DNA of 64,000 nucleotides, from assembly GCF_025384765.1 (NCBI RefSeq), contig NZ_VHLL01000001.1, positions 434,001-498,000 of the forward strand, read 5' to 3'. The position numbers and the translations under genes are program-made. This DNA comes from Methanoculleus formosensis (lineage in GTDB: Archaea; Halobacteriota; Methanomicrobia; Methanomicrobiales; Methanoculleaceae). Positions 32,924-55,757 of the stretch are shown in pieces (position 1 is the first letter of the stretch; each line of letters opens with the position of its first letter). The notes under the pieces are model-generated. The model did no database searches. It was given only the letters and a program-made list of their open reading frames with translations, and was not told the DNA's origin.

Positions 32924-32962
32924 AGCTGTGCCGGTTCAGTTTCACCCCCCGCACGGTGCACT

Positions 32963-34294
32963 TTAACTTTCGGGGGTGAAGGGGGCAGAGCGGGAAGTCC
33001 CCGGTCTTCAGGCCGGGGATGAAAGCGGGGCCCCCTTCCCAATTCACTTTCACCCCGCATGGATAACGTCTATCTCGTCCTCCAACGTATTTGCAGCGTC
33101 GATGCTCCTCTCCTACAAGTACCGGGCGTATCCCGGCGCAACCACCGAGACACGGCTGAACAGTGCGCTCGATACCTGTAGGTGGCTCTACAACACACTT
33201 CTCGAAGAATGTACTACCGCGCGGGAGCACGGGATCACTCCGACGATGCGAGGAACACAGGCGCGGATCGTCACGCTGAAAGAGGAGAATCCATTTCTGA
33301 AGGGCGTGTACTCCAAAGTGCTCCAGATGGTGAACTATACCCTCTGGAGCAACATCGCTGCACTCTCCCAGACACAGAAGAGAGGACGGAAGATAGGCAA
33401 ACTCCGGTTCAAGAGCGCATTCCGATACCGGACGATCAACTATAACCAGTCCGGGTTCAAGATCGACCGGGAACACGGCACGATCACGTTCTCGAAGATC
33501 GGAGCGATTCCGTTCACCCTGCACCGCCCGTACGCTGGCACGGTGAAGGGCGTCCTGATCACCCGTCGCGGGGATCGATGGTATGTGATCGTTCAGGCAG
33601 AGCAGGAGGCTTCCGCACCAAAGCGTGAAGGACGGTCTGTCGGTATCGATGTCGGTCTGAACTCGTTTGCAGTCGATAGCGATGGTGCGGTGATCGAGAA
33701 TCCCCGGTTCTCTGAGCACTCACTTGACCGGATCAAGAAGTTACACCAGAGTATTGCCCGGAAACAACGGTTCTCGAAAAACTGGAAGAAGGCAAAAGGG
33801 AAACTGGAGAAGGCGTATGAACATATCACGAGCCAGAAGAACGATTTCCTGCACAAACTTTCGCGTCGGTACGTTGACACCTATGCAACGATCTGTGTTG
33901 AAGACCTGAATATCAAGTATCTGAAAGAGAACGGCAACTCTCCGGGACTACACAGGAGCATTCACGATGCTTCATGGGGAAGATTCTATGCTTACCTCGC
34001 GTACAAGGCTGAAAGTGCTGGTACGAACCTTGTCAAAGTCGATCCCAGGAATACATCGCAGATGTGCTCGAACTGCGGAAGCATTGTGAAAAAAACGCTC
34101 TCTGAGAGAGTCCACGAATGTCCACACTGTGGGTTTGTTGCTGATCGAGATTACAATGCTGCGGTGAATATTCACCGCGTGGGGATGGAACAGCCCTTCG
34201 AGCCTGTGGAGACGATACCGCTACATCACATTGCTGTGATGCAAGTGTTGGCCATGAAGCAGGAAGCCCCGCCCTGAAGGGCGGGGTAGTTCAC
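32963..34294 (+). mobile_element. IS200/IS605-type TnpB-only element, copy 1
   Basis: The boundaries come from comparison with the second copy at 54367-55696. Both share TTAAC plus CGGGGGTGAAGGG at the left, then a left-end hairpin (CCCCGGTCTTCAGGCCGGGG here), tnpB, and a right-end hairpin CCCCGCCCTGAAGGGCGGGG followed by TAGTTCAC. They diverge outside these points. No tnpA is present, so movement would need a transposase in trans. It is inserted between a terminator and a methyltransferase gene. Confidence 0.8.
33102..34277 (+). CDS. tnpB: TnpB RNA-guided endonuclease, copy 1
   Basis: A 391-residue TnpB. The N-terminal helix-turn-helix (SYKYRAYP start, TCRWLYN) and beta-barrel come first. 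The RuvC nuclease residues are then present: Asp in GIDVGL (about residue 189-194), Glu in VEDLNIKYL (about 267) and Asp in DRDYNAAVNI. The zinc ribbon has CSNCG and CPHCG. All catalytic positions are intact. The frame extends upstream to base 32976, but MLLSYKYRAYP is the family start and matches copy 2. The 3' end of the gene plus the right end should encode the guide RNA scaffold. Confidence 0.92.
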   Translation: MLLSYKYRAYPGATTETRLNSALDTCRWLYNTLLEECTTAREHGITPTMRGTQARIVTLKEENPFLKGVYSKVLQMVNYTLWSNIAALSQTQKRGRKIGKLRFKSAFRYRTINYNQSGFKIDREHGTITFSKIGAIPFTLHRPYAGTVKGVLITRRGDRWYVIVQAEQEASAPKREGRSVGIDVGLNSFAVDSDGAVIENPRFSEHSLDRIKKLHQSIARKQRFSKNWKKAKGKLEKAYEHITSQKNDFLHKLSRRYVDTYATICVEDLNIKYLKENGNSPGLHRSIHDASWGRFYAYLAYKAESAGTNLVKVDPRNTSQMCSNCGSIVKKTLSERVHECPHCGFVADRDYNAAVNIHRVGMEQPFEPVETIPLHHIAVMQVLAMKQEAPP

Positions 34295-34460
34295 TGGTCG
34301 AAGCGGAAAACATGACGGTGCAGATGTGAAGTTGCCCCCGTGGCGACGGGAACCGCTCATGGGCGAGCGTGCTGCAGTTCATGGTCGTGCCCGCCGCACT
34401 GCCGGGAGGGACTCCGGTGCGGTTATGTAATAAGGGATATTAATCATAGAAAGAGTGGCC

Positions 34461-54329: not shown

Positions 54330-54366
54330 CTGTCACCTCCCGGTGAAATGTGCGTTCTCCGGCTAC

Positions 54367-55696
54367 TTAACTTGCGGGGGTGAAGGGGACTGAGCGGGAC
54401 GTCCCCGGTCGATAGATCGGGGACGGACGCACCGCTGCCCTTCTCCACTTTCACACTGCACGGATCATGTCTATCTTCTTTCAGATGAACACTCTTGTTG
54501 TCTATGCTCATTTCCTACAAGTATCGAGCGTATCCAGATGCAACCACTGAGGCACGGCTGAATGCCGCACTCGATACCTGTAGGTGGCTCTACAACAAAC
54601 TCCTTGAAGAGTGTAATACCACGCGAGAAACCGGGGTCACTCCGACGATGCGAGGAATGCAGGCGCGGATTGTCACGCTGAAAGAGGAGAACCCATTTCT
54701 GAAGGACGTGTATTCAAAAGTCCTTCAGATGGTGAACTATACCCTCTGGAGCAACATCCGTGCTCTGTCGCAGACAAAGAAACGAGGGCGGAAGATCGGC
54801 AAACTCCGGTTCAAGAGCGCATCCCGGTATCGGACGCTCAATTACAACCAGTCCGGGTTCAAGATCGACTGGGAAAACAGTAGGATTGCCTTCTCGAAGA
54901 TCGGAACAATCCCATTCACCATGTATCGACCCTACAGTGGGAAGGTGAAGGGCATCCTGATCACCCGTTCCGGTGATAGATGGTATGTGATCGTTCAGGT
55001 AGAGCAGACAGTGTCTGCATCAAAGCGTGAAGGGCGTTCTGTCGGCGTCGATGTCGGGTTGGATTCATTTGCGGTCGATAGCGATGGTATGGTGATCGAG
55101 AATCCCCGATTCTATGAGCACTCGCTTGACCGGATTAAGAAGTTGCAGCAGAGCGTTGCCCGGAAGCAACGCTTTTCACAGAACTGGAAGATGGCAAAAG
55201 GGAAACTGGAGAAGGCGTATGACCATATCACGAACCAGAAGAACGATTTCCTGCACAAACTTTCTCGTCAGTATGTTGACACCTATGCAACGATATGCGT
55301 TGAAGATCTGAATATCAAGTATCTGAAAGAGAACGGCAAATCTCGCGGGTTCCGGAGAAGTATCCACAGTGCGTCGTGGGGACGATTCTTTTCGTATCTT
55401 TCGTACAAGGCTGCAAGGGCTGGTACGAATCTTATCAAAGTCGATCCCCGGAATACGACGCAGATGTGTTCGAACTGTGGGAGTATCGTGAAAAAGGATC
55501 TCTCTGTGAGAGTTCACGAATGTCCATATTGCGGGTTTGTTGTCGGTAGAGATTACAATGCTGCGGTGAATATTCACCGCGTGGGGATGGAACAGCCCTT
55601 TGAGCCTGTGGAGCCAAGACCTCTCCATCACGTTTCTGTGATGCAAGTTTTGTCTATGAAGCAGGAAGCCCCGCCCTGAAGGGTGGGGTAGTTCAC
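54367..55696 (+). mobile_element. IS200/IS605-type TnpB-only element, copy 2
   Basis: The ends match copy 1: TTAAC then CGGGGGTGAAGGG on the left, a left-end hairpin (CCCCGGTCGATAGATCGGGG), tnpB of the same length, the right hairpin CCCCGCCCTGAAGGGTGGGG and the final TAGTTCAC. Length is 1330 against 1332 bases. The sequence differs from copy 1 at many third positions, so the copies are related but not recent. It is inserted between the peptidase promoter and a kinase-family gene. Confidence 0.8.
54504..55679 (+). CDS. tnpB: TnpB RNA-guided endonuclease, copy 2
   Basis: A 391-residue TnpB of the same length as copy 1. The RuvC residues are intact (Asp in GVDVGL, Glu in VEDLNIKYL, Asp in GRDYNAAVNI). 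The zinc ribbon has CSNCG and CPYCG. The start MLISYKYRAYP aligns with copy 1; the frame runs three codons further upstream. The C-terminus ends QEAPP in both copies, right at the conserved right-end hairpin. It should cleave DNA matching the sequence after the element's right end if the guide RNA is made. Confidence 0.92.
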   Translation: MLISYKYRAYPDATTEARLNAALDTCRWLYNKLLEECNTTRETGVTPTMRGMQARIVTLKEENPFLKDVYSKVLQMVNYTLWSNIRALSQTKKRGRKIGKLRFKSASRYRTLNYNQSGFKIDWENSRIAFSKIGTIPFTMYRPYSGKVKGILITRSGDRWYVIVQVEQTVSASKREGRSVGVDVGLDSFAVDSDGMVIENPRFYEHSLDRIKKLQQSVARKQRFSQNWKMAKGKLEKAYDHITNQKNDFLHKLSRQYVDTYATICVEDLNIKYLKENGKSRGFRRSIHSASWGRFFSYLSYKAARAGTNLIKVDPRNTTQMCSNCGSIVKKDLSVRVHECPYCGFVVGRDYNAAVNIHRVGMEQPFEPVEPRPLHHVSVMQVLSMKQEAPP

Positions 55697-55757
55697 CCGC
55701 CGTGATCCGCATCCGCCGACAGAGGGTTTAACCGGTTCCTCGCCGAGATCAGGAGTG

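What the first reader, a model, noticed from the sequence alone, without database searches (positions are those of the whole stretch)
32963..34294. Two TnpB elements allow element ends, TAM and guide to be read directly
Comparing this copy with 54367-55696 shows shared edges: the left edge is TTAAC followed by CGGGGGTGAAGGG, the right edge ends GGGGTAGTTCAC, and the flanks are unrelated outside. If these follow IS605 rules, TTAAC is the insertion site and TnpB target-adjacent motif. The 16-20 bases after TTCAC (TGGTCGAAGCGGAAAACATG here, CCGCCGTGATCCGCATCCGC in copy 2) would be the guide segments. Both nucleases keep all RuvC and zinc residues and neither has tnpA, so both could be active RNA-guided nucleases that depend on a transposase in trans. 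The shared edges are seen; the TAM and guide roles are inferred.
Basis: partly seen in the sequence, partly recalled or inferred. Interest (0 to 1): 0.6.

Follow-up and report, generated by a model that had tools for sequence, protein, structure and literature searches.

The report
TnpB elements re-entering the same sites
Two small selfish DNA elements carrying an RNA-guided DNA-cutting enzyme (a relative of Cas12) sit in this methane-making archaeon without any transposase, and comparison with sister species suggests that such elements spread by being copied into the same spot in different species, much as homing genes do.

Summary
Two of four tnpB elements of one family in this Methanoculleus genome lie at 32967-34294 and 54371-55696, both ending ...GTAGTTCAC. 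Empty sites in sister species, found for all four copies, join TTAA, not TTAAC, to the right flank, so the C belongs to the element and the predicted TAM is (T/C)TTAA, as shown biochemically for Sulfolobus TnpB (PMC11043419). The guide reading is supported by that paper and by empty alleles carrying the TAM plus a guide match. No Y1 TnpA exists in this genome, but other species of the genus carry tnpA-tnpB versions with the same ends. The surprise: at six of eight sites occupied in two species, tnpB is far less diverged than neighbouring genes (copy C against M. chikugoensis: 0 of 268 synonymous sites changed, neighbours 19%; element 2/1326 differences, flanks about 8%), identity ending within 16-69 bp of the element in the three pairs measured. 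Most species involved lack TnpA. I read this as recurrent same-site acquisition, most likely TnpB homing. That is inferred; no cleavage, RNA or homing was tested, and two shared sites (B, J) do not show the pattern.

The parts
32962..32966 (+). TTTAA: target site and predicted TAM of copy A (host DNA)
   Evidence: Present without the element in three congeners, joined directly to TGGTCGAAGC
32967..34294 (+). TnpB element copy A (1328 bp), no tnpA
   Evidence: Edges from empty sites and from 26 aligned copies
32999..33018 (+). left-end hairpin CCCCGGTC-TTCA-GGCCGGGG, preceded by GGGAAGT
   Evidence: Sequence; position conserved in the full copies
33102..34277 (+). tnpB of copy A (likely start ATG 33102; the GTG at 32976 lies in the left end)
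   Evidence: PF07282, PF01385, PF12323; similarity to TnpB structures 8bf8/8h1j
34267..34286 (+). right-end hairpin CCCCGCCC-TGAA-GGGCGGGG, presumed 3' part of the omega RNA scaffold
   Evidence: Conserved across the loci listed; weak covariation, 2 compensatory pairs
34295..34314 (+). predicted guide segment of copy A (host flank)
   Evidence: Exact match next to TTTAA in empty sites of three species; not tested as RNA
54366..54370 (+). CTTAA: target site and predicted TAM of copy C
   Evidence: Empty sites
54371..55696 (+). TnpB element copy C (1326 bp), no tnpA; 2 differences from the element at the same site in Methanoculleus chikugoensis (G004)
54403..54422 (+). left-end hairpin of copy C
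54504..55679 (+). tnpB of copy C
55669..55688 (+). right-end hairpin of copy C
55697..55716 (+). predicted guide segment of copy C (host flank)
   Evidence: Exact match next to CTTAA in empty sites L108 (G003) and L112 (G011)

Best explanation
These are tnpA-less members of an IS200/IS605-type family that inserts 3' of (T/C)TTAA. They were originally placed by a Y1 TnpA still encoded by relatives. TnpB with its omega RNA, whose guide is the host flank just after TTCAC, should cut the empty allele (TTTAA or CTTAA plus guide match) and spare the occupied one, where TTCAC replaces the TAM. Repair of the cut from an element-bearing DNA copies the element into the same site. Because the chromosomal site is conserved between species, this acts across species when DNA is exchanged, so the elements persist as homing elements without TnpA. 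Shown: ends, target, empty sites, absence of TnpA, same-site elements much more similar than their flanks. Inferred: cleavage, guide RNA, break repair as the route of transfer.
For: Empty sites for all four copies. Empty alleles carry (T/C)TTAA plus 0-2 mismatches to the 20-nt guide in many congeners. Synonymous changes per site in tnpB against pooled neighbouring genes: C own/G004 0.000 vs 0.193, p 4e-24; D own/G003 0.007 vs 0.199; E own/G017 0.054 vs 0.304; F G003/G004 0.003 vs 0.125; F G003/G009 0.056 vs 0.300; H G011/G015 0.044 vs 0.266; I G014/G031 dS 0.019 vs 0.06-0.12 in its neighbours. At C, D (own/G003) and E the first differences outside the element lie at 16-69 bp, whereas an ordinary transfer patch in this genome runs over 5.7 kb. 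Site C is empty in G003, whose flank resembles G004 more than own; site E is occupied only in own and G017 among the genomes with both flanks, with contiguous joined flanks in over 20 others. Y1 TnpA is absent from own, G003, G004, G007, G009, G011, G014, G015, G031. The left end of copy D in own and G003, TTAAGGCTTTGGGG, combines the empty site TTAAGGCTTTGTGG with the normal end TTAACTTTTGGGG. Homing into transposon-less alleles was proposed for TnpB (PMC8612924).
Against: Two shared sites do not show the pattern: B (own/G003) and J (G024/G018), both with tnpB more diverged than neighbours. Flank co-conversion is only suggestive: one exclusive shared base each at C (-21) and E (+18) near the edges, none at D. 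No RNA, cleavage or transfer data. A TnpA present transiently cannot be excluded, and G017 does carry Y1 genes. No control with non-TnpB insertions at shared sites was possible; the gene comparison relies on mechanically chosen flanking ORFs.
Confidence: 0.62

Rival explanations
1. Independent insertion of near-identical elements at the same site by a Y1 TnpA acting in trans, without any role for TnpB cutting.
For: Identity ends close to the element edges, as transposition would give; tnpA-tnpB forms exist in G010 and G017, and Y1 lies beside tnpB in G022 and G033.
Against: The target is only about five bases, roughly 1000 (T/C)TTAA sites per genome, so repeated same-site, same-orientation hits are unlikely; nine of the genomes involved have no Y1 gene. 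Copy D has an altered left end yet is shared.
Confidence: 0.15
2. Ordinary homologous recombination between species that happened to carry the element, with no nuclease-driven bias.
For: Multi-kb transfers between these species do occur (own/G007, 5.7 kb at 97.6%); the F pair G003/G004 has a low-divergence tract wider than the element.
Against: For C, D and E the six distances to the first flank difference are 16-69 bp; under exponential tract ends of mean 1 kb this has probability about 1e-9. Neighbouring genes in the C and E windows are not similarly low.
Confidence: 0.13
3. Old vertical insertions kept similar by ectopic gene conversion or by strong constraint on the element.
For: Conversion between copies is bounded by homology and would end at the element edges.
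Against: No near-identical donor copy of C exists in own (A and C differ by about 16%) and none was listed in G004; E has no close paralogue among the eight TnpB genes of own. Constraint is contradicted by tnpB dS 0.14 and 0.46 at sites B and J and 0.10-0.13 between some D pairs.
Confidence: 0.08

Closest known systems
Sulfolobus islandicus IS605-type TnpB7 (SisTnpB, PMC11043419)
   Same: Archaeal TnpB, TTTAA insertion site and TAM, NTTAA tolerated, guide starts directly after UUCAC, site flanked by TTCAC not cut
   Different: Different host; activity shown there by experiment, here only predicted. Here there is no TnpA in the genome and a same-site transfer signature
ISDra2 TnpB of Deinococcus radiodurans (PMC8612924)
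   Same: Same protein family, same logic of target = TAM and flank = guide; that paper proposed homing into transposon-less alleles
   Different: ISDra2 has tnpA and TAM TTGAT; the passages read there report no natural interspecies evidence
IS1341 group (tnpB-only IS elements, PMC9956272)
   Same: One tnpB flanked by IS ends, about 1.3 kb
   Different: Here a tnpA-tnpB relative with the same ends is at hand (G010), with partial tnpA remnants in sister copies
Homing endonuclease genes and mobile group I introns
   Same: Site-specific presence or absence, elements more similar than flanks across species, decay of some copies
   Different: Target specificity would come from an RNA guide copied from the flank, so each insertion site becomes its own homing site

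Membership tests
IS200/IS605 superfamily (tnpB-bearing) | Insertion 3' of a short target without target duplication | tested here: met
   Empty sites of four copies: TTAA joined to flank
IS200/IS605 superfamily (tnpB-bearing) | Subterminal hairpins at both ends | tested here: met
   Left and right hairpins in the full copies; covariation weak
IS200/IS605 superfamily (tnpB-bearing) | Y1 HUH transposase TnpA in the element | tested here: not met
   None in window copies or genome, so the copies are not autonomous IS605 elements; present in relatives G010 and G017 with the same ends, HYH motif kept
TnpB RNA-guided nuclease | RuvC residues and zinc ribbon | tested here: met
   Pfam and alignment
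TnpB RNA-guided nuclease | Omega RNA with guide from the flank | not testable with these tools
   Position only; no Rfam match
TnpB RNA-guided nuclease | TAM identical to target site | tested here: inconclusive
   Target is (T/C)TTAA; cutting not tested; matches SisTnpB
IS1341 group (tnpB only) | tnpB as the only gene, flanked by IS ends | tested here: met
Homing element | Same-site elements more alike than host flanks across species | tested here: met
   Six of eight shared sites; B and J do not show it
Homing element | Nuclease-dependent copying into the empty allele | not testable with these tools
   Needs experiment

The most novel reading that the evidence does not exclude
tnpB-only elements in methanogenic archaea move between species as RNA-guided homing elements with no transposase: each insertion records its site as guide, cuts empty alleles in recipients, and is copied in with very short flank conversion; the element lineage then follows the history of the site, not of the host.
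Probability: 0.55. Interest if true: 0.82.

Novelty: new member of a known kind. Interest (0 to 1): 0.66.

Why it matters
Homing by TnpB was proposed from biochemistry (PMC8612924) and drive was shown in plasmids (PMC11870625), but how tnpB-only elements persist is open (PMC9956272 calls it unclear whether they are autonomous or decayed). If the divergence signature holds in a wider survey, it is natural, chromosomal, interspecies evidence for RNA-guided homing, and it gives a simple test (element versus flank divergence at shared sites) that can be run on any tnpB or iscB family.

Tried and rejected
TTAAC as TAM: rejected, since the empty sites of A, B and D lack the C (copy C is ambiguous because its flank begins with C). 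Rfam search of copy A: no match. Covariation of the right hairpin: only 2 compensatory pairs, with 45 of 500 shuffles as high, so weak. Exclusive shared flank bases as proof of co-conversion: too few. The first dS script picked wrong ORFs for copies A and D and was replaced. Paper searches found no report of natural same-site spread of tnpB elements, but the library holds open-licence papers only.

Full report
Observation. Four further TnpB genes belong to other subfamilies or fragments. No Y1 transposase is found with PF01797, while the control genomes ring.

Ends and target. I joined the flanks of each copy and searched the genus (35 genomes). Contiguous empty sites were found for A (4 aligned loci), B (5), C (about 20) and D (26). 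In A, B and D the ancestral sequence is TTAA followed directly by the right flank; the C of TTAAC is gained with the element. Copy C is ambiguous because its flank starts with C. Over 26 copies the base before TTAA is T in 22 and the base after is C in 25. The target is therefore (T/C)TTAA in the window copies and the element runs from that C to TTCAC. A Sulfolobus TnpB with the same UUCAC end has TTTAA as cognate TAM, tolerates any base at -5, and does not cut its native target flanked by TTCAC (PMC11043419). Empty alleles in sister species carry TTTAA or CTTAA plus an exact or nearly exact 20-nt match to the predicted guides.

Origin. In G010 three copies, and in G017 one, carry a Y1 TnpA between the same left end and tnpB, in the same orientation; where the ORF was printed it is 135 aa with an HYH motif. 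Another G010 copy keeps only the ends of tnpA. The window copies show no tnpA remnant in that alignment. So the family had a TnpA, and the window copies are derived tnpB-only forms.

The unexpected part. Where the same site is occupied in two species, the element is often far more similar than its surroundings. Copy C in own and G004: 2 differences in 1326 bp, flanks about 8% (29/400 and 32/350), the divergence starting 16 and 21 bp from the edges; G003, whose flank resembles G004 more than own, has the empty site. Copy D in own and G003: 7/1327, flanks 5.6 and 7.5%, first differences at 69 bp on both sides. Fetching about 60 more TnpB loci gave five further shared sites (E, F, H, I, J) in other subfamilies. 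Synonymous divergence of tnpB against pooled neighbouring genes is strongly reduced at C, D, E, F and H, and below its neighbours at I; it is not reduced at J or B. Site E interrupts a DUF2284-like reading frame in own and G017 (family name from memory; not searched) and is uninterrupted in most of the genus.

Interpretation. Vertical descent is hard to reconcile with zero synonymous change in tnpB beside about 20% in its neighbours. Paralogue conversion lacks a visible donor in own. Independent TnpA insertions would need repeated hits on one of roughly 1000 target sites per genome in genomes that mostly lack TnpA. Ordinary recombination can leave long tracts here (5.7 kb) rather than tracts trimmed to the element. 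Homing by TnpB, proposed in 2021 for transposon-less alleles (PMC8612924) and shown as plasmid drive (PMC11870625), fits all of this. The hybrid left end of D in own and G003, TTAAGGCTTTGGGG, can be read as a repair joint between an empty allele and an element; two separate small mutations could also give it. In G004 the D copy has a frameshift, as expected for a homing element decaying after fixation.

Limits. No RNA or cleavage data; flanking ORFs were chosen mechanically; some genomes are incomplete (G015 and G031 about 80%); no control with nuclease-free insertions could be run. B has tnpB more diverged than its flanks, unexplained. The homing route is an inference at about 0.6 confidence; the element anatomy, target and lack of Y1 TnpA are firm.

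Noticed in passing
G000:C1:170001-175750 (L305 1-5752): 97.6% identical to G007 over 5752 bp amid more diverged surroundings: an ordinary multi-kb interspecies transfer.
   Followed up: partly
Copy D in own (L004/L305) and G003 (L279/L306): Left end TTAAGGCTTTGGGG looks like a hybrid of the empty site and the normal left end; shared by own and G003, while G004 and G007 have the normal end.
   Followed up: yes
G000:C6:109736-111079 (element E, L370 6737-8080): TnpB element of another subfamily interrupts a DUF2284-like ORF between PCIY and CEHLHC in own and G017; its target ends ATCTAC rather than TTAA.
   Followed up: partly
Copy B, G000:C2:36996-38329 (L002) and G003 (L278): Own and G003 share the site, but the element (4.8%) is more diverged than its flanks (1-4%), the reverse of C and D; unexplained.
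   Followed up: partly
L281 (G007 copy D) and L280 (G004 copy D): An insertion of about 51 bp near the 3' end of tnpB in G007; the G004 copy has a frameshift.
   Followed up: no
window 32976-33101: The reading frame of copy A is open upstream of the likely ATG through the left end (GTG at 32976); tnpA-bearing relatives start tnpB at the ATG, so the upstream stretch is probably not coding.
   Followed up: partly
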